Source: Candidatus Margulisiibacteriota bacterium (GTDB lineage: Bacteria > Margulisbacteria > WOR-1 > JAHJIW01). Taken from it: a stretch of DNA of 50,555 bases. The stretch spans positions 1 to 50,555 of the forward strand of contig JAHJIW010000018.1 in the NCBI GenBank assembly GCA_018823125.1. The letters run 5' to 3'. Positions within the stretch are counted from its first letter, which is position 1; every line of letters starts with the position of its first letter. Made by a program: the position numbers and the translations under genes. Under the pieces are notes generated by a model. The model did not search any database. It saw only the letters and a program-made list of their open reading frames with translations, and was not told the origin of the DNA. Below, piece after piece: positions 34,164-48,406 of this stretch.

Positions 34164-34847
34164 ATGAGCAGCGAAAAGACATCAAACAAATTCTTTGGTG
34201 ATATCGGAATCGATGGGCTCTCAAAAATATTGCCTTCCGGAAGACAAGCAGAAGATATCAAACTAGTAAAAAAGCTATGCAAAAAATCTGATAAAATCTT
34301 GGATTTGGCCTGCGGTTATGGCCGCGTAACCATTCCCATTGCAAAATTAGGTTATGATATCACCGGGATGGATCTTCTGCCAAAATATATAAAAAAGGCG
34401 AAACTTAACACAAGAAAAGCAAAATTAAAAATTCAATTTGATATTGGAAGCATGCTCCGCTTACCATACAAGAAAGATAGCTTTGATAAAATTTTATGCC
34501 TTTGGACCAGTTTCAGTTATATTTTAAAGAAAAGTGAGCAAATTAAAGCTCTTAATGAAATTTTTCGGGTGTTGCGTCCGAATGGAATCGCTTTTATTGA
34601 TACTTTTGATGGAGATAACACAGCAATAAAACTATTGTTAAAAGAAGAAGGTCAAGGGGTAGAAAAACGTTTACTATTTCTAGATTATGATATAGAGCTC
34701 AATGCAATTGTCCATGGAACCTTACACTATGTTCACGATCGAAAAAGTCTTGCAAATATTTGTAAAGCTTCGAAATTTAAGCATTTTATAGTAGGCTTTA
34801 AAAATATGTATGGGGGAAGAAGGCTGGCTGTATATCTTAATAAGTAG
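34164..34847 (+). CDS. SAM-dependent methyltransferase, copy A
   Basis: 227 residues, class I Rossmann methyltransferase: motif I LDLACGYGR (46-54), GMDLLPKYI acid loop, GSMLRLPYKKDSFDKI, ALNEIFRVLRPNGIAFIDTF. Strongly similar to the protein at 49421-50098, including the MSSEKTSN start and the preceding GGATAAATAA ribosome region. Being last in the operon with nucleotidyltransferases, it may N-methylate an amino headgroup or its precursor. Starts 4 nt after the previous stop. Substrate unknown. Confidence 0.88.
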   Translation: MSSEKTSNKFFGDIGIDGLSKILPSGRQAEDIKLVKKLCKKSDKILDLACGYGRVTIPIAKLGYDITGMDLLPKYIKKAKLNTRKAKLKIQFDIGSMLRLPYKKDSFDKILCLWTSFSYILKKSEQIKALNEIFRVLRPNGIAFIDTFDGDNTAIKLLLKEEGQGVEKRLLFLDYDIELNAIVHGTLHYVHDRKSLANICKASKFKHFIVGFKNMYGGRRLAVYLNK

Positions 34848-34849
34848 TC

Positions 34850-35548
34850 CTACTCAAAACCCTTTCGAACTGCCCTTATCACTGAATAAATATATAAGCC
34901 CAATGAACAAATTGCAGCATAGGCAAAATAAATTGCCAACAACTTAAAGTTCCAAAACAATACGGTCATAACCACCAACACGTTAGGCAGAGTAAAAGAA
35001 CTAATAAAAAAAATTCTTAATCGTTCGTCAATAGGTACCCTCCCGCTAGATGGAAAGGTTTTAAAAGTAAGTCCTTCTTGATTAATTGCATATTTATCAT
35101 AAATTAGGTCGAGATTAGCTCTAAATAAAATATCGGCCAAGGCAAATAATGCTACAAAAAATGACAACTCGACGTAACCATCATAATAAACACTAAACGC
35201 AAACGAAAGGAAAAATATTGGATGAAATAGATAATGAGACAAATCATCTAAATATGAACCAAGCAAGGAAGTAGTTCTTGTTGCTCTTGCTAAAACCCCA
35301 TCTGCAGCATCTATTAGATAAAACAAATGAAAAACAATTATTGCAGCAACATAATGTGCATTAAGATTAAAAAAAAGTGCAGGGAAAAGCAAAAAAATGC
35401 CACTCATGGTTAATTGATTTGCAGTAAATCCAATTTTATGTGAAATAAAGGCCATTGGAGCAGCAAATAGTGATGACAATATTTGAAAATAAAAGCATGG
35501 TTCTTTTACTACTGACTTTTTAAATGTTTTATATTTGTAATTTCCCAT
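34850..35548 (-). CDS. CDP-alcohol phosphotransferase with variant active site
   Basis: 232 residues from the ATG at 35548. An upstream ATG at 35608 lies inside a terminator palindrome and is rejected. Integral membrane protein, about six spans. The CDP-alcohol phosphotransferase signature is present as DAADGVLAR, 8 residues, GSYLDDLSH: the first three acidic ligands are intact, but the fourth, normally Asp, is His (H105). The family transfers a phospho-alcohol from a CDP-activated donor to a lipid or alcohol. With the LicC/PntC-like genes converging on it, it could be the final headgroup transferase. It ends 2 nt from the methyltransferase stop. Confidence 0.8.
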   Translation of the reverse strand: MGNYKYKTFKKSVVKEPCFYFQILSSLFAAPMAFISHKIGFTANQLTMSGIFLLFPALFFNLNAHYVAAIIVFHLFYLIDAADGVLARATRTTSLLGSYLDDLSHYLFHPIFFLSFAFSVYYDGYVELSFFVALFALADILFRANLDLIYDKYAINQEGLTFKTFPSSGRVPIDERLRIFFISSFTLPNVLVVMTVLFWNFKLLAIYFAYAAICSLGLYIYSVIRAVRKGFE

Positions 35549-35587
35549 TTTATTATCAATAATATCCGTATAGCTGCAATAAACAAA

Positions 35588-35613
35588 CAGGGATGAATAA
35601 TTATTCATCCCTG
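35588..35613 (-). terminator. 26-bp perfect palindrome terminator
   Basis: CAGGGATGAATAA and its exact complement TTATTCATCCCTG abut with no spacer. On the minus strand TTTGTTTATT follows, so it ends the transcript of the heptad-repeat protein gene. Confidence 0.75.
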
Positions 35614-35633
35614 TCAGTATTTAAATTTACCTA

Positions 35634-35834
35634 TTAGATATTTTTCTTAATAGCATTAATATCTGCTCTGATTGCTTTTATGTCTGCTTTCAATCTTTGT
35701 ATGTCGCCAACAACTCTTCTAGAAACACCAACCGTTCCTCTGCTAACGCCTACGGTTCCTCTACTAACACCCACTGTGCCTCTGCTATAACCGACCGTAC
35801 CTCTGCTGTAACCTAATGTACCTCTTCCCGCCAT
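35634..35834 (-). CDS. Nine-heptad repeat protein
   Basis: 66 residues = MAG plus exactly nine 7-residue units: RGTLGYS, RGTVGYS, three RGTVGVS, then RRVVGDI, QRLKADI, KAIRADI, NAIKKNI. The first five are Gly-rich and near-identical, encoded by a 21-bp tandem repeat; the last three keep the register but become amphipathic helix suited to a coiled coil. No Cys, signal peptide or membrane segment. Ribosome site AAGGAGGTGA is perfect and the gene has its own promoter and terminator, so it is probably made in quantity. It lies right after the M16 peptidases of the peptide-maturation locus, so it may be a multi-core substrate or a structural partner. No homologue recognised. Confidence 0.75.
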   Translation of the reverse strand: MAGRGTLGYSRGTVGYSRGTVGVSRGTVGVSRGTVGVSRRVVGDIQRLKADIKAIRADINAIKKNI

Positions 35835-35877
35835 TTAACTCACCTCCTTATTCTCATAACATTTTAACAATGAATTT

Positions 35878-35906
35878 ATTATAAGCCTCAGATGTTTGGT
35901 TTTCAA
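35878..35906 (-). promoter_or_regulatory. Promoter of the heptad-repeat protein gene
   Basis: Minus strand TTGAAA (35901-35906), 17-bp spacer, TATAAT (35878-35883). A GTTTTC/GAAAAC hairpin overlaps the -35 box. Confidence 0.7.
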
Positions 35907-35924
35907 GGAAAACAAACCTTATTT

Positions 35925-37250
35925 TTACTGGCCCACTATCACTAACGTATATGCTTCCGGATGCAAGTATTTTCTAGCAGCCCTTTGAATATCTTCTTTT
36001 GTAACATGGTTGATATATTCTGGATATTTATCAATAAAATCAAATCCCAAATCGAAAACTTCACAAAGAATCAAATAATTTGCCAAGGCTTCGTTTCCCT
36101 GCAAACCAAAGTAACTGCTGCCAATTAGATAGGATTTAGCATCCTCAAGCTCCTCAGTTAAAACCGGTTCATTTCTAATCTTTTGGAGTTCATTTAGTAA
36201 ACCCGTAATCGCCGCTTCCTTGTTTTCAGGAGAAACAGCCATATATGCCAAAAAGCGACCAGGTTCCATCCCTGCAGAGCCAGTAATGTCACTATAAGCT
36301 GTATAGGCTAATCCTTTGACATCCCTAAGGTTATAAGCAATACGCGAGGAAAGCCCGCCCGCACCTAAAATGATATCTAAAACTTCTAGGGTATAATAAT
36401 CAGGATTTTTGTATTTTATTCCCAAATGCCCCAGAAAAACGTGAGTCTGTTCTCCCTGCATATTTACTGTTTTTGCTATTATTTCCTTCTGGCTTGAAAT
36501 CTCAGGAAGTTCAGGAAGCTTAACCGATTTTCTGGGCCATCCACCGAACTCCTTTTTTATCTTGGGAATTATTTTTTGGGAATCTATATCTCCAGCAATG
36601 GCTAATACGGTATTGTTTGGCACATAATATTTTTGGTGAAATTGGATTAAATCCTCTCGAGTAATATTCTCAATTGTTTCCTCATACCCGGACAACGGCC
36701 GATGATATGGATGTTTCCCATATACATATTTATTGAATTCTAATTTACCTACTGTTTCTGGATCATCTCCTCGTGATTTTATGCCGGAAAGAAAATATTC
36801 CTTTTGCCTTTCCATTTCTTGATAGTCAAAAGAAGGATTAATCAAAACGTCGCTAATCATTTCCAGCGCTAAATCCAAATCATTTTTTGATGCTTCACAT
36901 TGCACAAAACTGCCGGTCTGGCTCCCACTCGAAATAATATAACCACCCGCAAATTCAATTTGAGAAACAACCTCTTCAGCACTTTTTGCTTGAGTACCTT
37001 TAGTAAGCATTGCGCTTACCAAATAAGACAATCCTGCCTTCTCATCCGGTTCATATTGGGAACCCGCCTTAACGTGGGCGATTAAACAAACTAAAGGTAA
37101 AGCATGATTTTCGTAAATTAGAACGGTTAAGCCATTATCTAAAACTACTTTAGATATGCTCGCCGGTGGTTGGGGCGGAGCACTAAAACCCAGCGCCATA
37201 AAGGACAAAATTATCAGAGCTATCAAATATATTTTTTTAAATTCAAACAT
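35925..37250 (-). CDS. M16 peptidase-like subunit, inactive (exported)
   Basis: 441 residues. Signal sequence at the N-terminus (YLIALIILSFMALGFSA). Two M16 domains: LDNGLTVLIYENHALP opens the first, KYYVPNNTVLAIAGDI and GGLSSRIAYNLRDVKGLAYTAYS mark the second half. The zinc motif HxxEH is replaced by YLVSA (Y76, S79, A80), so this subunit cannot be catalytic. The R/Y-type substrate-binding residues of an alpha-like subunit remain plausible in the second domain. It follows the active subunit by 5 nt, matching M16B heterodimers with one active and one inactive chain. Confidence 0.9.
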   Translation of the reverse strand: MFEFKKIYLIALIILSFMALGFSAPPQPPASISKVVLDNGLTVLIYENHALPLVCLIAHVKAGSQYEPDEKAGLSYLVSAMLTKGTQAKSAEEVVSQIEFAGGYIISSGSQTGSFVQCEASKNDLDLALEMISDVLINPSFDYQEMERQKEYFLSGIKSRGDDPETVGKLEFNKYVYGKHPYHRPLSGYEETIENITREDLIQFHQKYYVPNNTVLAIAGDIDSQKIIPKIKKEFGGWPRKSVKLPELPEISSQKEIIAKTVNMQGEQTHVFLGHLGIKYKNPDYYTLEVLDIILGAGGLSSRIAYNLRDVKGLAYTAYSDITGSAGMEPGRFLAYMAVSPENKEAAITGLLNELQKIRNEPVLTEELEDAKSYLIGSSYFGLQGNEALANYLILCEVFDLGFDFIDKYPEYINHVTKEDIQRAARKYLHPEAYTLVIVGQ

Positions 37251-37255
37251 ATTAA

Positions 37256-38587
37256 CTACTTATCCCTCGGCAAAAGCCAGCCAACTGTTCTATTTTTTTT
37301 AACTAAATACTTTTGAGCTACTCTTTGCACATCTTCTCTAGTAATAGATTCTATCTCTTGTGCATATTTTTGAAGTTGTTCAATACCATAAAAAAACTCT
37401 GTCGTTGCTAACAATTCTGCCTGGTCATTTATTGATTCCTGCAAAAAAAGAGCCCCCATCTCCAGCTGATTTTTAGCTCCTTTAATTTCGTGCTTTAAAG
37501 GCGGGTCTTGCTTTAAACTATCAATTTCGTTGAAAAGGTCAGCTTCGGCTTTTTGGCTACTTACTCCTTCTTTTAATTCTGCAGTAATTGAATAAATATA
37601 AGGATCCAAACTTTCATAATAAGAAGAACCAATGAATGTAAAAATGGGCTGCTCCTTCACCAACTTTTTGATTAATCGAGAATTCTCTCCGCCGGTCAAA
37701 ATGTAGTCCAATACTTGAAGGGCATAACTATCTTTAGTATCGTTTGGAGGAACATGGAACAATACCTGTATTATTGGATGAGTTACTCTTTGTTTTAATT
37801 CGAGTCTTTGTTCTTGTTTTTGCTCTGGTTCAATTATTGTTACCTGAGGAGGATCTGGCCCTTCGGGAATTTGGCCAAATAACTTTTTGATTAATTTAAG
37901 AGTCGAATCCGTTTGAATATCCCCTACCACCACCAAAATAGCATTATTGGGCTGATAATATGTATTATAAAAATTTAAAATCCCTTCCCTGGTAAAACCT
38001 TCGATCTCTTCTATAGAACCGGTAATAGAATTCCGATACGGATGCACCTTAAAGGCCTTTTTAAGATTTTCATCCCTAAAACTTACAAAGGGAGAATCTA
38101 GGTCCATTTTTCTTTCTTCAATAATTACTTTTTTTTCCGAAACAAATTCCATCGGATCAAAAACACAATTTCGCATACGATCCGCTTCTATCGCTAAGGC
38201 TATCTTTAAATACTTAGCAGGAAGACTTAAAGAATAATAGGTATAGTCCTCTGAAGTATAGGCATCTAACATTCCTCCATGTTTCTGTACGCTTGAATAT
38301 ATTTCACCCTTTTTAAATTTTTCTGTTCCTTTAAACATCATATGTTCCACTAAGTGTGCTTTCCCGCTTTTTCCCGAAATTTCATTTCTGGAACCCACTT
38401 TATAGAGGACCGTGGTCGCCACGATGGGCAAAGTGTGGTTTTCTTTGATTAAAACAGTGAGGCCGTTGGGAAGAGTTGTTTTAAATACATCTGTATCAGC
38501 TAAAGCACTGGTAATCATCAACAAAAGAAACATTATTGTCAAAGAAACACTATGCTTTTTATTAACGAATTGCCAGATATTACTCAT
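37256..38587 (-). CDS. M16 zinc peptidase, active subunit (exported)
   Basis: 443 residues from the ATG at 38587 (MSNIW). A TTG start at 38638 is also open but would put extra residues before the signal sequence (KKHSVSLTIMFLLLMITSALA). The zinc motif HLVEH with a downstream Glu pair (KKVIIEERKMD) is intact, followed by KYYQPN-like YYQPNNAILVVVGDI and second-domain motifs (GGENSRLIKKLVKEQP). M16 peptidases enclose and cut short peptides; pairs of active and inactive M16 proteins process several modified peptides (PqqF/G type). Located between B12 radical SAM genes and the heptad-repeat gene, it is the likely extracytoplasmic processing enzyme of the locus. Confidence 0.9.
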   Translation of the reverse strand: MSNIWQFVNKKHSVSLTIMFLLLMITSALADTDVFKTTLPNGLTVLIKENHTLPIVATTVLYKVGSRNEISGKSGKAHLVEHMMFKGTEKFKKGEIYSSVQKHGGMLDAYTSEDYTYYSLSLPAKYLKIALAIEADRMRNCVFDPMEFVSEKKVIIEERKMDLDSPFVSFRDENLKKAFKVHPYRNSITGSIEEIEGFTREGILNFYNTYYQPNNAILVVVGDIQTDSTLKLIKKLFGQIPEGPDPPQVTIIEPEQKQEQRLELKQRVTHPIIQVLFHVPPNDTKDSYALQVLDYILTGGENSRLIKKLVKEQPIFTFIGSSYYESLDPYIYSITAELKEGVSSQKAEADLFNEIDSLKQDPPLKHEIKGAKNQLEMGALFLQESINDQAELLATTEFFYGIEQLQKYAQEIESITREDVQRVAQKYLVKKNRTVGWLLPRDK

Positions 38588-38638
38588 TATGGTGAGTATA
38601 AATAGTCCACAAAAAGAAGTCAAATAACACCTGACCAA

Positions 38639-40588
38639 TTAAATACAAGAAATTATCCCCTGCTTTTGAAATGATTTAAATGTATTAAGAATATCTTGCT
38701 TAATTTTCTTACTATTAACCGAAAATAAGTTAACAATTTCGTTAATTGTCTGTTTTCCGTTACTATTTATAAGTAATTGATATAAAAATGGTGTTATAGA
38801 ATACGCCTCCATCATCTCCCCCGGAACATATAAAACATAACATTTAGATTTGGGGATATGCTCTCTTTTTTTTCCTCGCAAATAATCGGTTATCCCCAAG
38901 ATATCATATGCATATTCTTTAATCTTTACACCTTTGATCAATTTTGGTCGAGAATTCAATCGTACCGACCGAATTTTTTTAGCTTTTTGGCTTTGTTTAA
39001 AACTAGTTTTAAAGAACAGATCTTCGTGCATAAATACTTCTTTAATCAATTGCGAAGAAATTCCATCAATAAATGTTTTGACATAAGGAAAATAGTAATT
39101 TGTATAGGGCTTTGATTTTATGATCCTGGCCCAACCAGCTTTTGAAGAATCGAACACTGCAATCGTTTTCTTGCCAAGCTGCATAGGAGTCATTGATAAA
39201 TGTTTCATTAATAATAAAGTGGTCAGCGGAAAAGATTCACTTAAAAAGACAAAAAGATCACAAATTTTCTCAAGAAATCGGAATTGGTAATTTGACTCCC
39301 TTTTATAATAAAAGGTCGGGAAAATATGCAGGTACTTGTTTATTAGAGCGACTTCCTCTGGAAGCTTAGTCAATGTTTGTAATTTATCCGTTTGCCATAA
39401 ATCAGCCTGTTTAAATTGGCTTTTGGCATTAACGTATAATTCACTACCCTTCAGATATAAAAACGGGAAAACTTGAATCACCGGAGCAAAACTATAAAGC
39501 TTTGACTGCAATATTGAATATAGTGTTTGATTAATCTGAGCGGTTTTTTCGCCAGGGAAACCTATAATATAAGATAAACTCGTTTGAATGCCATTTTCGG
39601 TAAGCAATTTAAGAATTTGGGGCAATTTTGAAAGGGGTAAATTTTTCTTGATTTTCCTTTGCATTCCTGGAGAACCAGACTCAATGCCAATAAAAATTCT
39701 TCTGCAACCCGATTTTTTTAATTTCTTGATAATATCTCCATCTAACGCATCTAAACGTGAAAAACATATCCACTGAAAATTATCATTTGAAATAAGATCA
39801 AAAAATCCTTCAACAATTTTTCGAGAAACCAAGAAATGATCATGCATAATCATGACAAGAAAATCTTCTTTTTCTTTGTAAATTTCCTGAATCCTTTTCA
39901 TTTCTTGGGCCAACCGCTCGGCGGACTTTATTCTGAAGGTTCTTTTCCACATCCTACAATTTGAACAAAATGTACATTGGTGGGGACAGCCCCTTCCCGC
40001 CTCAATCTCAGCAGCTCTATATTTTTTTAAATGCGGGATCAAAGAAAAATCCGGAAAAACAAGTGTATTTAAGTCTTTTATTAAAGGGCGGTCAGGATTT
40101 TTGGAAACCCGAGAATTATTCCTATAAGTAATCCCTAAAATCTCCGCAAGAGACTCGTTTTTCTCTAAAGCAGCTAAGACCTCTCCTGTGGTGACATCCC
40201 CTTCACCACGCACAATTATATCAATTTGCACAAATGCCTTTAAAAGTTCTACATCATCAAAAGTAACTTCTGGGCCTCCCAAGATTATTGGAACTTTGGG
40301 ATCAATTTTTTTACACTCTTTTGCCAACAGCAAAATTGTCGGCAGCGTCAGACACATCACGCTAAAGCCTAAAACCTGTGGATTACTTCCCATAATTTCT
40401 TTGGCTGTTCGTTTAAAATAATTTGACGGAAACTTTTTCTTGGTAAAAAGTAAGTTTAAATCAATTATATGAGGATGATGATTTTCCTGTTTAAGACTAG
40501 AGGCCAGACATAGTAAACCCATCGGGATAAAACAATCATCCTGCGTATGTGGAGCTGATTGTGGAGCCTGAATAAGAGAAATGCGCAT
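38639..40588 (-). CDS. B12-type radical SAM enzyme with C-terminal PqqD-like domain (C)
   Basis: 649 residues. N-terminal B12-binding-like Rossmann domain (about 1-160: FIPMGLLCLASSLKQ, IIDLNL, IILGGPEVTFDD, DIIVRGEGD); it lacks the DxHxxG histidine. The radical SAM core has CPHQCTFC (CxxxCxxC), IFIGIESGSPGMQRKI and LSYIIGFPGE. After a helical region comes NSRPKLIKGVKIKEYAYDI, then a C-terminal PqqD/RRE-like domain (about 585-649: AYSITPFLYQLLINSNGKQT, INEIVNLF, ILNTFKSFQKQGII). PqqD-like domains bind leader peptides, so this enzyme probably acts on a peptide; B12 radical SAM enzymes commonly C-methylate unactivated carbons. Closely similar to the next gene upstream. Confidence 0.88.
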   Translation of the reverse strand: MRISLIQAPQSAPHTQDDCFIPMGLLCLASSLKQENHHPHIIDLNLLFTKKKFPSNYFKRTAKEIMGSNPQVLGFSVMCLTLPTILLLAKECKKIDPKVPIILGGPEVTFDDVELLKAFVQIDIIVRGEGDVTTGEVLAALEKNESLAEILGITYRNNSRVSKNPDRPLIKDLNTLVFPDFSLIPHLKKYRAAEIEAGRGCPHQCTFCSNCRMWKRTFRIKSAERLAQEMKRIQEIYKEKEDFLVMIMHDHFLVSRKIVEGFFDLISNDNFQWICFSRLDALDGDIIKKLKKSGCRRIFIGIESGSPGMQRKIKKNLPLSKLPQILKLLTENGIQTSLSYIIGFPGEKTAQINQTLYSILQSKLYSFAPVIQVFPFLYLKGSELYVNAKSQFKQADLWQTDKLQTLTKLPEEVALINKYLHIFPTFYYKRESNYQFRFLEKICDLFVFLSESFPLTTLLLMKHLSMTPMQLGKKTIAVFDSSKAGWARIIKSKPYTNYYFPYVKTFIDGISSQLIKEVFMHEDLFFKTSFKQSQKAKKIRSVRLNSRPKLIKGVKIKEYAYDILGITDYLRGKKREHIPKSKCYVLYVPGEMMEAYSITPFLYQLLINSNGKQTINEIVNLFSVNSKKIKQDILNTFKSFQKQGIISCI

Positions 40589-40592
40589 CTTA

Positions 40593-42605
40593 TTATTTCC
40601 CTTTCGGTTTCTTTGAAAATATCTTAGGAATATAAATTATGTTCTGCTTCTGCAAAACTTTTAATAATTTCAACAATGCTTTTCTCGATAATTTATCATT
40701 CTCTACACCTAAAATATTGCTAATTATTTCGCCGGCTGTTCTTCTGCCATTACAAAGCGAAAGGATACGATATAAATGCGGGGTTAAAGCAAAAGACTCA
40801 GCGGTTACTCCCGGAACAACAGCCATAAAACTTTGGACTCTTTTCACTTTTATTGCTATTCCTGATCTCAAGTTTTTAATAATTGAAGAAACGTTATAAT
40901 TATATGTTTTAATTTGCACTCCCCTAGTGATTTTAGGGCGAGAAGTTAGGTGGATTTTATTCCTATTAGATAGGCCAGGATCAACAAAAAAGTCGGTTCT
41001 ATGAAACAATTCTTCGTAAGCAAAAACTTCTTTGATTAAATCCGCAGCATAGTGTTTAACGAATTTCTTGAAAAATGGCAAATAATAACAAAATAAGGAT
41101 TTTCCGGGTTTTTTTACCTTCCACTCTATTTCCAAGGAATTAAAAAACGAAATTAATCTACGATCCAATGCTAACGGGGACATCGAAAAGGACTTGAGCA
41201 ACAAAGATGTAGTTATCGGGAAAAATTCTATCAGGAAACTAAATAGCAAACAGGTTCTGGCTAAAAATATTGGCTGAAAATCCTTTCTTTTCAAAGAATA
41301 AAAAGAAGGGAAAATTCGAGGGTATTTTTTAATTAAATCAAACTCTTCTGACAAACCAGTTAGCATTGGAGAAATTGCCGAATGCCAAAATTCTACATTC
41401 TTAAAATCATCTTTAACCTTATTAAACATCTCGCTGCCCTTAAGAAAAGTTGCCGGACGAATCCAAACATTCGCCAAAAATCCATATAATTTTGCACTTA
41501 AAGCCATATTCAACGTTTTATCAATTTGGGACGCCTTTTCATTTGGAAATCCAATAATAAAGGAGAGTGTAGATTGAATCTCATGCTGACTTAGCAACTT
41601 TACAACTTTAGGAAGCATGGAAAGTGGTAGGTTTTTTTTAATTTGTCTCTGAATTTGAGGAGAAGCTGATTCAACTCCGATCAGCATACCACGACACCCG
41701 GCTTTTTTTAATTTCTTAATTAAGGGCTCATCCAAAGCCTCTAAACGTGAAGAACAAGCCCAGGCGATATTCTTATGAGCAATTAAAGATAAAAATTCGT
41801 CTGCGGTTTCGCGCGAAGTTAAAAAATGATCATGAATAACATTTATACACGAATCCTCGGTTTTATTAAAAAGTGAATCTACCAGCATGATTTCCCTGGC
41901 TAATCGCTGGGGGGATTTAATTCTAAAGGTTTTTCTCCACATTTTACAGGTCGAACAAAAAGTACATTGATTCGGGCATCCCCGACCAGCTTCAATTTGT
42001 CCAATTTTGTATTTATCCAGATGAGGAAGAATCGAAAAATCTAAGGGAGGCAAACTATCTAAATCTTCAATAAAAGGCCGATCAGGATTTTGAATAACTT
42101 TGCCTTTTTGTCTATAAGTAATTCCCGCAACATTCGAGAGAGGCTCACCCTTTGAAAAATTTGATAGAACCTCCGTAAAAGTTAGCTCGCCTTCCCCCCT
42201 AACGATAATATCAATAAATTTAAACGTGTTTAGTAGTTCAACGCCTTCAAAAGAAACATCGGGTCCCCCTAAAATAATTGGAAGCGCAGGTTCAATTTTT
42301 TTACATTCTTTTGCAATTAAGAGTGTTTCTGGCAAAGTAGAACAAACCACCGTAAATCCAATTACACTCGGCCGCGAATTTAATATTTTCCTTGCCGCGC
42401 TCTTGAAAAAATTGGAGGCCAATTTACCACTTTTAAAATGTAGATTCAAATCAACAATAATCGGATCAAAACTAAATTGCTTCAAATATTGAGCTAAACA
42501 CAATAGTCCAAAAGGAACGTAGAAATCAACATCGCTATCCGGAGGCTGAACCAACGCTATGCGGTTCTTTTTTACTGTCAAATTTTTATCTGGGTCATTA
42601 TTCAT
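40593..42605 (-). CDS. B12-type radical SAM enzyme with C-terminal PqqD-like domain (B)
   Basis: 670 residues, paralogous to the product at 38639-40588 through its whole length. B12-binding-like domain (FYVPFGLLCLAQYLKQ, IIVDLNLHF, IILGGPDVSFEG), radical SAM CPNQCTFC, LIGVESASPQIQRQI, LSFIIGFPNE, then LTSRPKITRGVQIKTYNYN and a C-terminal PqqD-like domain (SFALTPHLYRILSLCNGRRT, AGEIISNIL, LLKLLKVLQKQNII). The pair probably performs related modifications on different residues or on different peptides. TAGGATT lies before the start, 7 nt after the previous stop. Confidence 0.88.
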   Translation of the reverse strand: MNNDPDKNLTVKKNRIALVQPPDSDVDFYVPFGLLCLAQYLKQFSFDPIIVDLNLHFKSGKLASNFFKSAARKILNSRPSVIGFTVVCSTLPETLLIAKECKKIEPALPIILGGPDVSFEGVELLNTFKFIDIIVRGEGELTFTEVLSNFSKGEPLSNVAGITYRQKGKVIQNPDRPFIEDLDSLPPLDFSILPHLDKYKIGQIEAGRGCPNQCTFCSTCKMWRKTFRIKSPQRLAREIMLVDSLFNKTEDSCINVIHDHFLTSRETADEFLSLIAHKNIAWACSSRLEALDEPLIKKLKKAGCRGMLIGVESASPQIQRQIKKNLPLSMLPKVVKLLSQHEIQSTLSFIIGFPNEKASQIDKTLNMALSAKLYGFLANVWIRPATFLKGSEMFNKVKDDFKNVEFWHSAISPMLTGLSEEFDLIKKYPRIFPSFYSLKRKDFQPIFLARTCLLFSFLIEFFPITTSLLLKSFSMSPLALDRRLISFFNSLEIEWKVKKPGKSLFCYYLPFFKKFVKHYAADLIKEVFAYEELFHRTDFFVDPGLSNRNKIHLTSRPKITRGVQIKTYNYNVSSIIKNLRSGIAIKVKRVQSFMAVVPGVTAESFALTPHLYRILSLCNGRRTAGEIISNILGVENDKLSRKALLKLLKVLQKQNIIYIPKIFSKKPKGK

Positions 42606-42612
42606 TATAATC

Positions 42613-45018
42613 CTACTTCATTATCTGCTTATCAGCAGGAATGATTATCCCATCTGACAACAATTGTTTTGCCAATTTTAGATAGGCTTTCATCTCTTTT
42701 TTTGTTAAGGTTCCCATAATATCACTCAATGATTTTTTCCCATTAAAATGGCACAAAAAAGAAAGAATTACAGAATCATCATAATATATCTCTTCACTAT
42801 TCTTATTAAATATTAGGACTTGTCCAATTTGCACCTGTGACTCTTTTCTGCTAACTACAAGATCATTTAATTGTACAAATTTAATCCCCTTAAATCTCTT
42901 CCCACGTTTCTGATTGCTCAATATTCGATTAATAAACGGGAGGGTATCTTTTTTATTATTTCTCTCGGCAAAAATCACATCAGGAGAAATTAAATATATA
43001 TTATCCATTGAAATTGCAGAAACTCTCTTTTTCTTTTGGCTATCAGAAAAGCAAAGGTGCCTTTCTTGAAAATCATTATCCTTTTCGATAAGTTCATCAA
43101 AAAGCGAATATATCTGTTTCCTGCCGTTAAATGCATCCATCCTCCCGATATCTCTCTCTCCACAAATTATTACTTTATTTCTTTCAACCTTAAACAACTC
43201 CAAACAATCTTGGCAGCCCTGAGGTATAAATATAGCCTTATTAAGTAATTGGTTGATTTGTTTGTCATGAAAATTTGGGGGGAAGGGTTTAGTAAGCACA
43301 AAATCAATACCATTTTCAACCAAGTATTTTAAAAACAAACGGAAATTTCTTATAAATTCATTAATTTTGCAATGCTGAGTAATTCTCACGGAAAGATAAC
43401 AAAACTTGGGTTTGATTAAATCAATCTTACTAATATTTAATGAAAGATCGAAATCCATTGAATTAATTACCACTAAACTTTTGGTTGGCGATTTTCGCTT
43501 TACATCTGTACTCGCAAGCTTTGTTTTGTTTTCAAAATCAACAAAATATATACTTTTTTCTCGATAAAGAAAGTAATTGAACACAAAATAGCTTTTTCCC
43601 GAAACATTTTCTAACCCAAGCATGTCTCTTGCCTTTTCATAATTAGACAGAAATTTATTAATTCCAATTTCCGGAATAAATACAAATTTATCTGGATTTT
43701 CATCACGGATTAAATTCAAGGTATCTTGAAATAAAAACATTTGTTCATCTAGAAAAACATCTCCCTGCCTCAAAACCGCCCAACGGTCTAACTTTTTCAA
43801 GTAATTTCTAAACACGTTAACCGCCGGGGTATCCGGGTATGGCGTCATTATCCAAAATTGAATTGCTGCTCCCAGGTTTTTTAGTTCCGCAGCTAATGAA
43901 ACCGTATCCCAAAAATCCTTTTCAGTTTCCCCAGGTATACCAACCATAAACGAACAAGTAGAGGTTATGTTTAAACTGTTTTCGATGATGATAATTTTCT
44001 TAATGTATTCATTAGTAATGGAGGGGCTATTTTTTTTACTTAGAATACCGCGCATTTTCATATTCCCAGATTCAATACCATGGTAAATACTCACGCATCC
44101 TGAATCCCGCATTTTTTTCAGCAAATTATAATCCACCTGATCAATACGTGTTAAACATGACCAAGAGATATTTCTTTTCTTCAGCCCTCGAATAAGCTTT
44201 GACGCCCAGCTTCGATTTAATGTTAAACAGTCATCCTCAAACCCAATAAAATCTGTTTTTAAATTCTTTATCTGATAATCTACTTCTTTAAGGATCATCT
44301 TCACCGGTTTCCGTCTTTGATATTTCCACATGCGATTTGAAGAACAAAATAAACACTTATATGGACATCCCCTACTGGCAATCACCCGACCATTTTTCTT
44401 CAGCTGCGGTCTTTGATAAAATTGAAAATGAGCGGGCCTTAATTTTATTCTTTTATCATGACGAATTTGTTTTAATAAATCATAAGCTGGGAACGGCAGC
44501 GATGATAAATTCTTTATGAGAGGTCTTTCAGGGTTATGTTGCACTATCCCATTCTTTTTATAGGACAACCCCAAAATATTTTGCAAATCAACCTGCTTTC
44601 CACGGCCTGATAAAAAATCTAACAATTCCGTAAAAGTTTCCTCTCCTTCGCCACGGATAATATAATCAATGTGACATAATTCAAATAGTTCCTTGGGTCT
44701 AAAGGTTGGATGTATTCCCCCCAATACAATCGGTATGTTTAATTTTTGCTTCAACATTTTTGTAAATTTTACACAAAAGGGAACATGAATAGTTTGGCAG
44801 GTTATTCCGATGACATCAGGGGAATACTTTTCCACCTTTTCCAAAGCCTTATGAAACTTTTTTTCAGGATCAATTATCTCAAACACTTCTGCATTGAGAT
44901 CGAGAATATGGATATCGCGATACCCTTTTTTTCGAATAAATCCAGCTAGCTCGGCTAAATTAACCGGCAGGGAGGCACAAGTATAAGACCACACGGGGTT
45001 TAAGAGAAGAATCTTCAT
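42613..45018 (-). CDS. B12-type radical SAM enzyme with C-terminal PqqD-like domain (A)
   Basis: 801 residues. B12-binding-like domain (NLAELAGFIRKKGY, IHILDLNAEVF, IVLGGIHPTFRP, DYIIRGEGEETF), radical SAM core with CPYKCLFC, EDDCLTLNRSW, IYHGIESGNMKMRGIL and MVGIPGETEKDF. Residues about 490-720 form an extra region not seen in its two neighbours (ICGERDIGRMDAF, QGCQDCLEL), which I do not recognise. The end (about 740-801: ILSFLCHFNGKKSLSDIMG, LLSDGIIIP) is PqqD-like. First of three such genes. A TGTTATAAT extended -10 box ends 6 nt before its ATG, so it also has a probable leaderless promoter of its own. Confidence 0.86.
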   Translation of the reverse strand: MKILLLNPVWSYTCASLPVNLAELAGFIRKKGYRDIHILDLNAEVFEIIDPEKKFHKALEKVEKYSPDVIGITCQTIHVPFCVKFTKMLKQKLNIPIVLGGIHPTFRPKELFELCHIDYIIRGEGEETFTELLDFLSGRGKQVDLQNILGLSYKKNGIVQHNPERPLIKNLSSLPFPAYDLLKQIRHDKRIKLRPAHFQFYQRPQLKKNGRVIASRGCPYKCLFCSSNRMWKYQRRKPVKMILKEVDYQIKNLKTDFIGFEDDCLTLNRSWASKLIRGLKKRNISWSCLTRIDQVDYNLLKKMRDSGCVSIYHGIESGNMKMRGILSKKNSPSITNEYIKKIIIIENSLNITSTCSFMVGIPGETEKDFWDTVSLAAELKNLGAAIQFWIMTPYPDTPAVNVFRNYLKKLDRWAVLRQGDVFLDEQMFLFQDTLNLIRDENPDKFVFIPEIGINKFLSNYEKARDMLGLENVSGKSYFVFNYFLYREKSIYFVDFENKTKLASTDVKRKSPTKSLVVINSMDFDLSLNISKIDLIKPKFCYLSVRITQHCKINEFIRNFRLFLKYLVENGIDFVLTKPFPPNFHDKQINQLLNKAIFIPQGCQDCLELFKVERNKVIICGERDIGRMDAFNGRKQIYSLFDELIEKDNDFQERHLCFSDSQKKKRVSAISMDNIYLISPDVIFAERNNKKDTLPFINRILSNQKRGKRFKGIKFVQLNDLVVSRKESQVQIGQVLIFNKNSEEIYYDDSVILSFLCHFNGKKSLSDIMGTLTKKEMKAYLKLAKQLLSDGIIIPADKQIMK

Positions 45019-45024
45019 AGACTA

Positions 45025-45033
45025 ATTATAACA
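45025..45033 (-). promoter_or_regulatory. Extended -10 promoter of B12 radical SAM gene A
   Basis: Minus strand TGTTATAAT (TATAAT at 45025-45030), 6 nt before the ATG at 45018, with no ribosome site between. Leaderless start expected. Confidence 0.5.
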
Positions 45034-45059
45034 AAGGTGATGAGGGTTTTCATCTTGAA

Positions 45060-45210
45060 GAGAACAATTAAGATATACTTTTCACAACCGTCAGCTTCCC
45101 TCCAGAAACTTTATACAAAAAACACTATCTTTCTGACACTAACCAAACATCGTATTGCTGTTTTCCATTCCTAGAGGGAAGCATATTAGCATCAACCAAC
45201 AACATTTACA
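45060..45210 (-). pseudogene. Decayed fragment of a SPASM radical SAM gene
   Basis: Immediately after the stop of peptide 2, the minus strand reads TTTAATGTAAATGTTGT...GTTGATGC...GCTTCCCTCTAGG and later TTTCTGGAGGGAAGC...AAAAGTATATCTT. These align, with similar spacing (about 123 versus 136 bp), to the part of the intact radical SAM gene (about 46630-46797) coding for the CxxxCxxC loop, ALPSRD and the SGGEP motif. All frames are broken by stops (TAG, TGA). It is the eroded remainder of a second enzyme copy. Confidence 0.7.
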
Positions 45211-45372
45211 TTAAATCCAATATGCTACGGATCTTGCAATTCCTTTTTGGACTTTAATCAATTTTTGACCAGCTAGTTTCTTAGCATCTGCTGCTTTTAC
45301 GTATACCGGAACATTTGTGCCAGCAAGTTTAACTTTTTTCATTTTCATTGATTTCTTTATCTTCTTTTTCAT
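45211..45372 (-). CDS. Putative RiPP precursor peptide 2 (53 aa)
   Basis: 53 residues, paralogous without gaps to the peptide at 46896-47057 (41 of 53 identical). Three zones: a Lys-rich variable start (MKKKIKKSMKMKK), a conserved middle VKLAGTNVPVYVK then KKLAGQ, and an invariant end KLIKVQKGIARSVAYWI (37-53). No Cys, no signal peptide. It has its own promoter (TTGACA-N17-TATAGT) and a perfect AAAGGAGGTGA ribosome site, features of abundant precursor peptides. It sits between the PqqD-like gene and the B12 radical SAM genes, next to a decayed radical SAM fragment. Modification on the C-terminal aromatic cluster (AYWI) or on VPVYVK is inference. It could alternatively be a small regulatory protein. 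Confidence 0.75.
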   Translation of the reverse strand: MKKKIKKSMKMKKVKLAGTNVPVYVKAADAKKLAGQKLIKVQKGIARSVAYWI

Positions 45373-45403
45373 GTCTCCTCACCTCCTTTTACCTAACAAA
45401 AAT

Positions 45404-45432
45404 ACTATATTAAAGTATTCTTCTTTTGTCAA
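45404..45432 (-). promoter_or_regulatory. Promoter of peptide 2
   Basis: Minus strand TTGACA (45427-45432), exactly 17 bp, TATAGT (45404-45409); followed by AAAGGAGGTGA before the ATG at 45372. Confidence 0.8.
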
Positions 45433-45472
45433 TCATCTACTTTAGATAATTACTGTGTCAATTAGCAGTATA

Positions 45473-45748
45473 TTATTTTCCCAAAAAACTAGATGCTCGC
45501 AACTCTTGTTGAGATCGTTTAATCCTTTCTCCTGCCATCTTCAAAGAAATGCGCATTTTTTTGGCTAAGCTTGCTTTGCAACGCTCAACCGAATTATTAA
45601 TTGTATGTTTTAATACCTGAAAAGAAATTTCATCTAAAAGAAAAGTAGCCATTTCATCGGAATTATGAGCAATATAATAATCCTTTTCCTTTCTAATGAT
45701 TTGAGTCCTACCATTAACTTTATATTTAAAAACTTCTCCAATTTTCAT
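45473..45748 (-). CDS. PqqD/RRE-like peptide-recognition protein
   Basis: 91 residues. A beta-rich start (GEVFKYKVNGRTQIIRKEKDYYIAHN) and a helical second half (FLLDEISFQVLKHTINNSVERCKASLAKK, ISLKMAGERIKRSQQEL) follow the PqqD layout, in which a small winged-helix-like domain binds the leader of a precursor peptide and presents it to a radical SAM enzyme. It lies 6 nt after the SPASM radical SAM gene with a GAGGGAT ribosome site inside that gene's end, so the two are cotranslated. The call rests on pattern and context; sequence identity to PqqD is low. Confidence 0.72.
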   Translation of the reverse strand: MKIGEVFKYKVNGRTQIIRKEKDYYIAHNSDEMATFLLDEISFQVLKHTINNSVERCKASLAKKMRISLKMAGERIKRSQQELRASSFLGK

Positions 45749-45754
45749 AATCTT

Positions 45755-46873
45755 TTAATCCCTCACGCATCTCGAATCTGAAACAAGCATATTACCTGAT
45801 AGAAAATGGGCTTCTCCCGGACAGGCCCCCGAACAATAAGGATTTTCACAATTGCGACAAAAACCAATTAAATTTTTTCTGGTTAGTCCACGCAGCTTAC
45901 TAAACACTTCAGATCCATTCCATACTCTGCTCAGATCATTTTCCTTTATATTACCTGCCTTAAGCTCCTCAATTCCCATCATCTGCTCACACGGATAAAT
46001 ATCTCCATTGGCAGAGATTGCACAACAATTAATCGCGGCTGTACAGTGAAAGTCTCCCGTAGGTACAATCGCATGCTCAAGGTCAATCTTCCATACTTTT
46101 TTCAAAATGTTCTTTCTTTCTTTTGCCGGTAATGGATAATACAACTCCCACGAACAAAAATTACAATTAAAAGGCACTATCTGAATATTTTTATAAACCA
46201 GATCATTACTAATTTTTTTCTTTGTTAATTCAAGATAAAAATCTTTCCATTTTTCATAAGATAATGCATAGTCTTTTGCTTGGTCCACTGCCCTACCTGC
46301 CAAAGAAAGAGGAAATATCTTAACCAAATCCACCTTTAATTCACGCGCAATACTTAAAAGATCATAAAAATAACTACAATTTAATTTAGTAAGTACAAAT
46401 TCTAAAGCGACCTTAATGTTTTTTCTTTTTAACTTTTCAATTCCACTAATGACTTTCTGAAAACTTTGCGGCACCCCACAAATTTGCTCTTGAATTATTT
46501 TGGGCCCATCCAAGCTAACGTTCACTAATTCAATATCAGATTTGACTAATTCTTTTGCAATCTCATTAGTAATAAAAAAACCATTGGTGTTGAGGGTTGC
46601 GGAAAAATCGTAACGTTTTAAAAGGGAGATAACCTGAAGAATATCTTTTCTGATTAATGGCTCCCCTCCAGAAATCTTAACCAATAAAACATTGAGCTCT
46701 TGGCATTGATCAAAAACTTTCTTGATATCTTTTACCGTAAGCTCATCCCTGGAGGGAAGCGCATGCGCATCAACAAAACAATATTTACACTTAAAATTAC
46801 ATCGCTTGGTCAGATGAAAAAAAACCCGGACCGGAGCACTTAAATAATTACGCTTTTTTTTACTTTTGACCAT
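45755..46873 (-). CDS. SPASM-domain radical SAM peptide maturase
   Basis: 372 residues from the ATG at 46873; the TTG at 46882 in the same frame is less likely. Radical SAM core with CNFKCKYC (C25, C29, C32), ISGGEP, TNGFFI, VNVSLDG. The C-terminal SPASM/twitch region carries many Cys for auxiliary Fe-S clusters: CTAAINCCAISANGDIYPCEQM, then FCRNCENPYCSGACPGEAHF and a final SRC. SPASM enzymes modify ribosomal peptides through thioether, C-C crosslink, epimerisation or splicing chemistry. With no Cys in the neighbouring 53-residue peptides, a thioether is excluded and carbon-carbon crosslinking or another Cys-free reaction is more likely. It follows peptide 1 by 22 nt and precedes the PqqD-like gene. 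Confidence 0.92.
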   Translation of the reverse strand: MVKSKKKRNYLSAPVRVFFHLTKRCNFKCKYCFVDAHALPSRDELTVKDIKKVFDQCQELNVLLVKISGGEPLIRKDILQVISLLKRYDFSATLNTNGFFITNEIAKELVKSDIELVNVSLDGPKIIQEQICGVPQSFQKVISGIEKLKRKNIKVALEFVLTKLNCSYFYDLLSIARELKVDLVKIFPLSLAGRAVDQAKDYALSYEKWKDFYLELTKKKISNDLVYKNIQIVPFNCNFCSWELYYPLPAKERKNILKKVWKIDLEHAIVPTGDFHCTAAINCCAISANGDIYPCEQMMGIEELKAGNIKENDLSRVWNGSEVFSKLRGLTRKNLIGFCRNCENPYCSGACPGEAHFLSGNMLVSDSRCVRD

Positions 46874-46895
46874 AAACGACAACTACAAAATCCTA

Positions 46896-47057
46896 TTAAA
46901 TCCAATATGCTACTGATCTAGCAATTCCTTTTTGAACTTTAATCAATTTGTGGCTAGCTAATTTCTTTACATCTGATTGTTTAACATATACAGGAACATT
47001 CGAGCCAGCAAGCTTAACTTCTTTCATACTTTCTGCTTTTTTTGCTTTCTTAGGCAT
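46896..47057 (-). CDS. Putative RiPP precursor peptide 1 (53 aa)
   Basis: 53 residues. Variable Lys-rich start (MPKKAKKAESM), conserved VKLAGSNVPVYVK and KKLASH, and the invariant C-terminal 17 residues KLIKVQKGIARSVAYWI. Identical in length to peptide 2. Ribosome site GGGAGGTGA is near perfect; a TTGACA-N17-TATATT promoter lies at 47097-47125. It is the first gene of the peptide, SPASM radical SAM, PqqD-like trio. The pattern, a variable front and an invariant tail in two paralogues, suggests the tail is the essential product or the enzyme-binding part. No similar described precursor is known to me. Confidence 0.78.
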   Translation of the reverse strand: MPKKAKKAESMKEVKLAGSNVPVYVKQSDVKKLASHKLIKVQKGIARSVAYWI

Positions 47058-47096
47058 AATTCTTCACCTCCCTTTCAGGTATAAGTTCATAAAGAA

Positions 47097-47125
47097 AATA
47101 TATACAATAAAGTTACCCTTGTCAA
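47097..47125 (-). promoter_or_regulatory. Promoter of peptide 1 / radical SAM operon
   Basis: Minus strand TTGACA (47120-47125), exactly 17 bp, TATATT (47097-47102). A consensus-like strong promoter, about 40 nt before the start of peptide 1. Confidence 0.8.
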
Positions 47126-47147: not shown

Positions 47148-48233
47148 CTAAATCAACAAATTACCATTTCGCATTAATATTTTGGATGGCATTTGAGGCC
47201 TACGATAGAAAACCTCGATCGTCGGATGAATAACTAAAAAATCGCGGTGAGTTTTTGAAATGTTTTTTCCACCAAACGTGGCATTGTGTCCAAAAGCAAC
47301 ATGAATAGTCTCGATTGCTTTTTCGTCTTGCAAAAGGCTACCAATCAGATTATAAGGCCCCAATCCAATCCCAAGCTCACCAATTACTGAAGCCATTTCA
47401 TCCAATAAAAGTTTTTCTTTTAATCTTCCTAAAAAATTGCTTTGATCCATAAACTGAGGATCTCGCCACCGAATGCCGACTAAATCATTTTTTACCCTTC
47501 TAATCTTGCCATTGTTAATTTCGATTATTAGCGGAGAAGGGACAAAACCAAAGTCACCGATTGCCCCATCAACTACTAATATCCCATTTGCCCCATCCTC
47601 CACCGGCGCACAATAAATCTCTCCGTTAGGAATATTTGTTACATCTCCCGGCCTGGCAATTAAATCATCCTGCCATGGTCTTCCAGCAATTTGGATTTCT
47701 ACGTTGGTACCAAGGTTTGAAGTTATTTTAACCTTTTCGGCATGTTGGAAAGCCTGGCTGATTCTAAAACTCGTTTCTTTAAGTACAGCATAATCTACCT
47801 TGATTTTAAGCATTTCTTCTGTAATCGCCGGAGAATGACAAATTTTTGCACCACTTGCTATTTCTGCTTTTACTAACCTTACCCTACTCGCAGTCTCTTC
47901 CGGAATACCATCAAAAAAATTAAGGCAAATATCATATCCACTCCGAACAACAGCCTCTATCTCTCCTATCCCTCCAGAAACAAAACGATTTTCGCTAAGT
48001 AAAAAATCATCAACCGTTGCGCCCAGTGTTTCAGCCCCTTCCGTAAAAGCCCGTGCAATAGATAGCTTATCCCTATCACAAACAATTAAAATTCTTTGCC
48101 CTTTTCTTAAAGAAAATACGTGAGATAAAACATCCTTAGCCCTAATCGTTAAATTTGTGGCCTCAGCTCTCCGCCTTGTCGCAGCTTTCACTGCAACCGG
48201 AGGTTTAGATGAGGTCATCTTTCGCACTGGCAT
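47148..48233 (-). CDS. M29-like aminopeptidase
   Basis: 361 residues. Motifs of the thermophilic aminopeptidase (M29/AmpS) fold: ARAFTEGAETLGA near the start, NIPNGEIYCAPVEDGANGILVVDGAIGDFG, ELGIGLGPYNLIGSLLQDEKAIETIHVAFGHN, and GKNISKTHRDFLVIHPTIEV. Catalytic metal ligands (Glu, His and Asp) appear conserved. It removes N-terminal residues from peptides in the cytoplasm. Its N-terminal 20 residues are basic and Ala-rich (KPPVAVKAATRRRAEA), outside the family core. GAGGAG lies 8 nt before the ATG and a sigma-28-like site 45 nt upstream. It precedes the peptide 1 operon on the same strand, so trimming of the modified peptide is conceivable. Confidence 0.75.
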   Translation of the reverse strand: MPVRKMTSSKPPVAVKAATRRRAEATNLTIRAKDVLSHVFSLRKGQRILIVCDRDKLSIARAFTEGAETLGATVDDFLLSENRFVSGGIGEIEAVVRSGYDICLNFFDGIPEETASRVRLVKAEIASGAKICHSPAITEEMLKIKVDYAVLKETSFRISQAFQHAEKVKITSNLGTNVEIQIAGRPWQDDLIARPGDVTNIPNGEIYCAPVEDGANGILVVDGAIGDFGFVPSPLIIEINNGKIRRVKNDLVGIRWRDPQFMDQSNFLGRLKEKLLLDEMASVIGELGIGLGPYNLIGSLLQDEKAIETIHVAFGHNATFGGKNISKTHRDFLVIHPTIEVFYRRPQMPSKILMRNGNLLI

Positions 48234-48278
48234 GCTTACTACTCCTCTGTTTATTGATTAATAATTCTATCCATCTAA

Positions 48279-48305
48279 TCTTCGAAAAATACCACAATAA
48301 ATTTC
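48279..48305 (-). promoter_or_regulatory. Sigma-28-like promoter of the M29-like gene
   Basis: Minus strand GAAATTTA, 11 nt, TTCGAAGA, preceded by AAAGT as at the tpiA-like and Com-like promoters (shared AAAGTGAAATTT). Position fits a 45-nt leader. Confidence 0.55.
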
Positions 48306-48396: not shown

Positions 48397-48406
48397 TTTT
48401 AACAAA

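What the first reader, a model, noticed from the sequence alone, without database searches (positions are those of the whole stretch)
35634..47125. An apparently undescribed RiPP-type locus: twin peptides, one SPASM enzyme, three PqqD-tailed B12 radical SAM enzymes and an M16 pair
Seen: on one strand, peptide 1, SPASM radical SAM, PqqD-like protein, peptide 2, three B12-type radical SAM proteins that each end in a PqqD-like domain, active and inactive exported M16 peptidases, and a heptad-repeat protein. Known: PqqD/RRE domains bind leader peptides, SPASM enzymes modify peptides, B12 radical SAM enzymes often C-methylate, and M16 pairs cut modified peptides. Inferred: a multi-enzyme peptide natural product or peptide cofactor pathway with four radical SAM enzymes acting on very short Cys-free substrates. 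I recognise no characterised family with this gene set.
Basis: partly seen in the sequence, partly recalled or inferred. Interest (0 to 1): 0.93.

Follow-up and report, generated by a model that had tools for sequence, protein, structure and literature searches.

The report
Peptide factory with four radical enzymes
A microbial gene cluster encodes two nearly identical 53-residue peptides next to four radical enzymes and a peptidase pair, and is predicted to turn such peptides into cross-linked, methylated products, a kind of chemistry that other bacteria use to make antimicrobial peptides.

Summary
The gene list and order are real: pep1 - SPASM radical SAM enzyme - 91-aa protein - pep2 - three B12/radical SAM enzymes - active and inactive M16 peptidases - heptad-repeat peptide, all on the minus strand. 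The three small genes look real: pep1/pep2 evolve under purifying selection, the heptad units differ in codons but hardly in residues, and three of the region's four best promoter-like sites lie 60-72 nt before them. The SPASM enzyme scores best with WgkB and the B12 enzymes with ApyD, all far below cut-off. B12b and B12c end in a PqqD-like domain; the B12a tail is weakly supported, the 91-aa protein not at all by sequence. Two other lineages (Lachnospiraceae; Anaerococcus/Tissierellia) carry precursor-like peptide - WgkB-like SPASM - small protein - B12 radical SAM. This supports a RiPP reading, a new variant of a known kind. pep1, pep2 and the 91-aa protein found no relatives outside the window's own sequence in a 5.8-billion-protein search, so substrates and products are unproven. 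The heptad peptide's likeness to cyclopropylglycine precursors failed its control. One joint pathway or two adjacent ones cannot be separated here.

The parts
46896..47057 (-). pep1, 53 aa, candidate precursor; identical last 17 residues with pep2, ending SVAYWI
   Evidence: strong Shine-Dalgarno; no relative but pep2
45755..46882 (-). SPASM radical SAM enzyme (listed from TTG; gene-caller start ATG at 46873, 372 aa), WgkB-like
   Evidence: Pfam Radical_SAM + SPASM; best NCBIfam WgkB 275 bits, cut-off 650, next 153
45473..45748 (-). 91-aa protein, candidate free-standing leader-binding (RRE) protein
   Evidence: position and size as wgkC and as small proteins of L004/L006; model with three strands then one long helix; no sequence support
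45211..45372 (-). pep2, 53 aa, twin of pep1
   Evidence: 77% identical to pep1; dN 0.157, dS 0.637
42613..45018 (-). B12a: B12-binding + radical SAM, 801 aa; tail weakly PqqD-like
   Evidence: full-length relative at 48% in G013 only of 74 phylum genomes
40593..42605 (-). B12b: B12-binding + radical SAM, 670 aa, PqqD-like tail
38639..40588 (-). B12c: B12-binding + radical SAM, 649 aa, PqqD-like tail; about 47% identical to B12b
37256..38638 (-). M16b: M16 peptidase with HLVEH, listed from TTG (true start not settled)
35925..37250 (-). M16a: M16 homologue without the zinc motif
35634..35834 (-). heptad-repeat peptide, 66 aa: five GT[LV]G[YV]SR units and a charged helical-looking tail
   Evidence: found once in its genome
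47097..47125 (-). promoter-like site TTGACA-17-TATATT before pep1
   Evidence: 11 of 12 matches
45404..45432 (-). promoter-like site TTGACA-17-TATAGT before pep2
   Evidence: 11 of 12 matches
35878..35906 (-). promoter-like site TTGAAA-17-TATAAT before the heptad peptide
   Evidence: 11 of 12 matches
35586..35615 (-). terminator-like hairpin after the heptad peptide
   Evidence: 13 pairs, T-rich tail

Best explanation
Two twin peptide genes, a WgkB-like SPASM radical enzyme, a 91-residue protein that is likely its leader-binding partner, three B12-binding radical SAM enzymes and an M16 peptidase pair lie in one locus that likely makes a modified peptide (RiPP): the SPASM enzyme would form a carbon-carbon cross-link at the aromatic C-terminus AYWI of pep1/pep2, the B12 enzymes would methylate unactivated carbons, and the M16 pair, predicted to be exported, would cut off the leader. 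Shown: genes, motifs and Pfam domains, the PqqD-like tails of B12b/B12c, purifying selection on the twins, promoter placement, and a matching gene order in two other lineages. Inferred: that pep1/pep2 are the SPASM substrates, that AYWI is the core, that the 91-aa protein binds the leader, that the cross-link is WgkB-like, that the B12 enzymes are C-methyltransferases (by likeness to ApyD), and that they act on pep1/pep2, on the heptad peptide, or on both. Because the last 17 residues of the twins are identical, they would deliver the same product, for dosage rather than diversity.
For: Best model of the SPASM enzyme is WgkB, 275 bits against 153 for the next. wgkA - wgkB - wgkC is precursor - radical SAM enzyme - RRE protein (PMC8092268, passages), the order seen here. 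L004 and L006/L022 carry peptide - SPASM with WgkB as best model (L004 and L006 scanned) - 93-101-aa protein - B12 radical SAM; L038 carries SPASM - B12 enzyme - PqqD-like protein. B12b/c tails are PqqD-like, and ApyD, their best model, is an RRE-containing Tyr C-beta methylase. dN 0.157 against dS 0.637, only synonymous changes in the last 17 codons. Three of the four 11-of-12 promoter-like sites precede the three peptides. In each of the three genomes with B12b/c-type enzymes one cluster also holds a SPASM enzyme. The B12a relative of G013 converges on a SPASM enzyme behind two more B12 enzymes and a small peptide; G013 also holds the closest M16 pair, 47-50%.
Against: pep1 and the 91-aa protein found only the window's own sequences in 5.8 billion proteins (the search needs shared 5-residue words). 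pep1/pep2 are not clearly like the L004/L006 peptides (best of four tests 26 of 2000 shuffles). The 91-aa protein has no sequence support as an RRE. No WGK motif. No transporter in the locus. B12a has its own promoter-like site (10 of 12), 192 nt separate it from pep2, so it may be another unit. Two more B12b/c-type copies in the own genome, C14 and C10, have no SPASM enzyme or candidate peptide beside them. The SPASM enzymes of G018 and G013 are of other types than WgkB (two of three in G018 scanned). Six of the nine loci with a B12 hit near the SPASM gene, all but L004, L006 and L022, lack the full order.
Confidence: 0.5

Rival explanations
1. Two neighbouring, independent peptide pathways: pep1/pep2 with the SPASM enzyme and the 91-aa protein, and the heptad peptide with B12a-b-c and the M16 pair. 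The B12 enzymes would methylate repeated Val, Tyr or Thr residues of the heptad units.
For: 192-nt gap with a promoter-like site before B12a, gaps of 0-7 nt from B12a to M16a, heptad peptide and a terminator-like hairpin at the end. Separate promoter-like sites for pep1, pep2 and the heptad peptide. B12b/c carry their own PqqD-like tail and so need no shared partner.
Against: SPASM and B12 enzymes lie together in L004, L006/L022 and L038, in G018 and in G013. The heptad peptide's tail is not shown to be related to the G018 peptides, and its TigB match fails a control.
Confidence: 0.3
2. A peptide-derived redox cofactor, in the manner of PQQ or mycofactocin, cut from the C-terminal Tyr-Trp-Ile by the M16 pair.
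For: Identical aromatic C-termini in two copies; an M16 pair, with PqqF among its weaker models; MftC and PqqE among the SPASM enzyme's weaker models.
Against: MftC 125 of 265 bits and PqqE 115 of 381 bits; no dehydrogenase among the flanking genes that I scanned. PqqF scores below YfmH/YfmF for both M16 proteins. The three B12 enzymes have no counterpart in PQQ or mycofactocin routes (recalled).
Confidence: 0.08
3. Not a peptide pathway: the B12 enzymes modify a lipid or another metabolite, the M16 pair is general, and the small genes are unrelated small proteins.
For: M16a relatives at E 1e-20 in 27 of 31 class genomes. HpnJ and BchE are also among the B12 enzymes' models. Flanking genes include a CDP-alcohol phosphatidyltransferase and an aminotransferase. 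The exporter cassette next to the G013 M16 pair also occurs in four genomes without a B12b/c-type match at E 1e-40.
Against: Most of those M16a relatives are about 30% identical; the close one (49%) is in G013 alone. PqqD-like tails and RiPP maturases as best models point to peptide substrates.
Confidence: 0.12

Closest known systems
wgk operon (tryglysin RaS-RiPPs of streptococci; WgkB model NF050035)
   Same: order precursor - SPASM radical SAM - small protein; WgkB is the best model of the SPASM enzyme (operon from PMC8092268 passages)
   Different: 275 bits against a cut-off of 650; no WGK motif; 53-aa twins instead of a 21-aa prepeptide; three B12 enzymes and an M16 pair added; no transporter gene in the locus
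apy cluster (aminopyruvatides; ApyD, model NF050148)
   Same: RRE-containing B12 radical SAM enzyme in a peptide cluster; best model for all three B12 enzymes
   Different: 162-249 bits against a cut-off of 750; Pfam scan of the ten proteins shows no MNIO or P450; three copies instead of one
uncharacterised loci L004 (Lachnospiraceae) and L006/L022 (Tissierellia/Anaerococcus porci)
   Same: peptide - SPASM with WgkB as best model - small protein - B12 radical SAM
   Different: SPASM identity about 28%; peptides with TSLQWNRT; a NodU-like protein and an MFS-like protein (the latter by eye) instead of an M16 pair
TVG/TIG cyclopropylglycine RiPPs (TvgA/TvgB; TigB model NF047709)
   Same: the heptad peptide repeats a TVG triplet, as TvgA repeats TVGG (PMC9062424, passages)
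   Different: TigB 14.2 bits against a cut-off of 70, and a permuted control scores higher; no TvgB-type enzyme identified
PQQ and mycofactocin pathways
   Same: SPASM enzyme, small partner protein, short precursor; M16 peptidases in PQQ (recalled)
   Different: PqqE and MftC models far below cut-off; no Val-Tyr C-terminus

Membership tests
wgk-type RaS-RiPP | SPASM enzyme over the WgkB model cut-off | tested here: not met
   275 bits, cut-off 650, although best model
wgk-type RaS-RiPP | WGK motif in the precursor | tested here: not met
   single Trp at position 52 of 53 followed by Ile
wgk-type RaS-RiPP | RRE protein directly after the SPASM gene | tested here: inconclusive
   91-aa protein in place; no sequence support; model strands then helix, pTM 0.49
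aminopyruvatide (apy) | B12 radical SAM enzyme over the ApyD cut-off | tested here: not met
   162, 234 and 249 bits, cut-off 750
aminopyruvatide (apy) | MNIO and P450 in the cluster | tested here: not met
   no such Pfam domain in the ten proteins
PqqD/RRE-tailed B12 radical SAM enzymes | C-terminal PqqD-like domain | tested here: met
   B12b/B12c family tails Prob 95.2 and 96.1 with controls at most 0.4; Pfam PqqD itself stays below cut-off; B12a only weak
TIG/TVG cyclopropylglycine RiPP | precursor over the TigB cut-off | tested here: not met
   14.2 bits, cut-off 70; control not passed
PQQ / mycofactocin | PqqE or MftC over the model cut-off | tested here: not met
   115 of 381 bits and 125 of 265 bits
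RiPP in general | precursor is modified after translation | not testable with these tools
   needs co-expression and mass spectrometry; the small genes look constrained and well placed for expression

The most novel reading that the evidence does not exclude
A dual-substrate radical-SAM peptide factory: a WgkB-like enzyme closes a new C-terminal Tyr-Trp-Ile cross-link on twin precursors, and three B12 enzymes, at least two with their own leader-binding tails, methylate both that core and a five-unit GTVGVSR repeat peptide, so that one locus yields a cross-linked C-methylated mini-peptide and a poly-methylated repeat peptide, both trimmed outside the cytoplasm by the M16 pair.
Probability: 0.18. 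Interest if true: 0.85.

Novelty: new variant of a known kind. Interest (0 to 1): 0.6.

Why it matters
Radical SAM enzymes make bonds in peptides that are hard to make otherwise. If the reading holds, this locus joins a WgkB-like cross-linking enzyme with three B12 methylases and orphan precursors. It would give new substrates for both enzyme classes and a direct test of whether one leader can serve several radical enzymes. The loci L004 and L006/L022 suggest that the pairing of WgkB-like and B12 enzymes is a wider group.

Tried and rejected
TigB likeness of the heptad peptide as evidence for cyclopropylglycine chemistry: rejected. It scores E 0.033; one of five unit-permuted controls scores better (0.0023), the other four and all four full shuffles do not match.

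Homology of the heptad peptide's tail to the tails of three G018 peptides: rejected. 375 of 3000 composition shuffles and 707 of 3000 pattern-keeping shuffles reach its score. Its hit is by construction, since it was in the alignment searched.

Homology of pep1/pep2 to the L004 and L006 peptides: not supported (694, 209, 472 and 26 of 2000 shuffles reach the score in four tests). RRE identity of the 91-aa protein: not supported by sequence.

PHROGs on eight small proteins gave only matches of E 0.096 or weaker. PDB sequences for the B12b/c tail: PadR-like regulators on top (E 0.1), a PqqD chain at E 1.8. Predicted structure of the B12c tail: pLDDT 53, not used. Pfam PqqD over the own genome: no match.

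SPASM orthologues with a known neighbourhood: none. The genome-contig scan used one peptide pattern; the best of the 80 loci kept has 31% identity. 143 relatives, 31 class and 74 phylum genomes gave only the own genome at E 1e-40 or 1e-45. The organism was named by no call and I do not name it.

The exporter cassette as a marker of this system: only partly useful. Its small membrane protein matched in 10 of 74 genomes at E 0.01, two of them marginal (E 0.003 and 0.0096). Of the 8 clear ones, 4 had no B12b/c-type match at E 1e-40 (G010, G017, G027, G029). In G017 a B12 enzyme 27% identical to B12b lies about 1.6 kb away.
Full report
WHAT IS THERE. Gaps from B12a to M16a are 0-7 nt; 192 nt lie between pep2 and B12a, 90 nt between M16a and the heptad peptide.

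THE SMALL GENES. pep1 and pep2 are 77% identical; dS is 0.637 and dN 0.157, and the last 17 codons differ only at synonymous sites. The five units GTLGYSR, GTVGYSR and three times GTVGVSR use different codons for nearly the same residues. The promoter scan found 52 sites against 46.5 +/- 6.4 in shuffles, so their number means nothing. But of the four sites with 11 of 12 matches in 13.2 kb, three lie 60-72 nt before the three peptide starts on the right strand; the fourth lies inside B12a. By chance this would happen about once in a million placements (the upstream windows were set after seeing the sites). A 13-pair terminator-like hairpin follows the heptad peptide, although such sites in the region are fewer than in shuffles (6 against 9.0).

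ENZYMES. The SPASM enzyme's best NCBIfam model is WgkB, 275 bits (cut-off 650); the next has 153. All 13 members of alignment A1 match WgkB at E 1e-20, but so do they match eight other models. The three B12 enzymes score best with ApyD: 162, 234 and 249 bits, cut-off 750. ApyD is an RRE-containing B12 radical SAM enzyme that methylates the C-beta of Tyr (PMC10635010, passages). Eight tails of the B12b/c family, from the own genome, G018 and G020, match the PqqD domains of four proteins with Prob 95.2 and P 2.9e-8; a reversed profile and 20 column permutations give at most 0.4. A seven-member PqqD set gives 96.1, with 40 permutations at most 0.3; three of its members I added by my own reading, two of them checked against the first four. 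Single tails reach Pfam PqqD only below cut-off (E about 0.06, 2 of 10 scanned) and NCBIfam PqqD at 0.0034 at best. The B12a tail gives 8.3 against PqqD (40 permutations at most 1.9) and 42.7 against the B12b/c tails. The 91-aa protein gives at most 2.0, while shuffles of it reach 2.6; its single-sequence model has three strands and then one long helix. M16b keeps HLVEH, M16a has lost it.

RELATIVES OF THE PEPTIDE MODULE. pep1 finds only itself and pep2, the 91-aa protein only itself, among 5.8 billion proteins; the search misses relatives that share no 5-residue words. The SPASM enzyme has nine relatives at 44-57% (P0004-P0012) without organism names, and none at that level among the 80 loci kept from the named genome collection (best 31%). 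I looked for small neighbours in 23 of those 80 loci; 11 of 23, by my reading, have an RRE-sized protein beside the SPASM gene. A B12-enzyme hit lies within the held flanks of 9 of the 80, and all nine were annotated. L004 and L006/L022, the last two nearly identical, carry a 31- or 49-51-aa peptide with TSLQWNRT, a SPASM enzyme (best model WgkB, 196 and 164 bits, L004 and L006 scanned), a 93-101-aa protein, a B12 radical SAM enzyme, an MFS-like protein (by eye) and a NodU-like protein. L038 carries SPASM, B12 enzyme and a PqqD-like protein. L028, L031, L041, L075 and L076 look different. This shared order is the strongest support for a RiPP reading and agrees with wgkA-wgkB-wgkC (PMC8092268, passages).

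RELATIVES OF THE B12 MODULE. B12b/c-type enzymes at E 1e-80 occur in 3 of 383 relatives: own genome, G018, G020. In G018:C125 they alternate with three SPASM enzymes, each beside a 71-77-aa peptide, and an ABC exporter; two of the three SPASM enzymes were scanned and score best with DynA and with the sulfatase maturase. In G020:C224 a SPASM-like fragment lies at the contig end. Two further copies in the own genome, on C14 and C10, have no SPASM enzyme or candidate peptide beside them; the C14 copy adjoins the ABC exporter cassette. A full-length B12a relative is in 2 of 74 phylum genomes, own and G013. In G013 it converges on a SPASM enzyme that follows two more B12 enzymes, a TrhP/UbiU-like protein and a 59-60-aa peptide with SWGYGYHSSSGG. 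The closest M16a relative (49%) is also in G013, paired with an M16b relative (47%) beside the exporter cassette; the other M16a relatives, in 27 of 31 class genomes counted with these, are at 27-32%.

HOW IT WOULD WORK (inferred). The leader of pep1/pep2 is bound by the 91-aa protein; the SPASM enzyme cross-links at AYWI; the B12 enzymes methylate pep1/pep2, the heptad peptide, or both; the product is exported, perhaps by the C14 cassette; M16b/M16a cut it. I give a modified-peptide pathway of some kind about 0.88 (best explanation plus the first two rivals), and the joint chain 0.5.

LITERATURE. Nine searches listed no paper that I could recognise from title and abstract as describing this gene set; the library lacks most subscription journals. 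I read outline, passages and Discussion of PMC9062424, and passages of PMC10635010 and PMC8092268.

VERDICT. Observation mostly right, interpretation partly right; a new variant of a known kind.

Noticed in passing
L004 9717-17607; L006 4831-12396; L022 8957-16522: A conserved candidate RiPP cluster in Lachnospiraceae and Anaerococcus/Tissierellia: TSLQWNRT peptide, WgkB-like SPASM, small protein, B12 radical SAM, MFS-like protein, NodU-like protein and one more gene.
   Followed up: partly
L106 6209-15372 (G013:C20): A second multi-radical-SAM locus of the same class: B12a relative, two more B12 enzymes, a SPASM enzyme (best model PapB), a TrhP/UbiU-like protein and a 59-60-aa peptide with SWGYGYHSSSGG.
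   Followed up: partly
L104 and L105 (G018:C125): A cluster with three SPASM-peptide pairs, at least four B12b/c-type enzymes and an ABC exporter; one peptide holds WEN, a motif I recall from cyclophane RiPPs.
   Followed up: partly
L101, L103, L140, L163-L166: A cassette of ABC transporter, 71-76-aa membrane protein and response regulator, mostly with an SLH-like barrel protein, clear in 8 of 74 phylum genomes.
   Followed up: partly
window 31065-35608: Nucleotidyltransferase, class V aminotransferase (BhcA/PhnW-like), nucleotidyltransferase with DUF2284, methyltransferase and CDP-alcohol phosphatidyltransferase: looks like a head-group or aminophosphonate-lipid pathway.
   Followed up: no
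window 34164-34847 and 49421-50098: Two methyltransferases, 59% identical, lie on either side of the locus.
   Followed up: no
window 47148-48233: A protein with a partial M29 aminopeptidase match sits 90 nt upstream of pep1 on the same strand; it could trim peptides or be unrelated.
   Followed up: no
window 48209-49405: A 398-aa protein without a Pfam or NCBIfam match at E 1e-5; by eye it resembles U32-type proteins such as those beside radical SAM genes in L106 and L166.
   Followed up: no
window 45018-45053: The TATAAT before B12a ends 6 nt ahead of its ATG, as in a leaderless transcript.
   Followed up: no
window 38639-47057: The genes from pep1 to B12c have a G+C of 31-36% against 38% for the window, the heptad peptide 43%; foreign origin is possible.
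   Followed up: no
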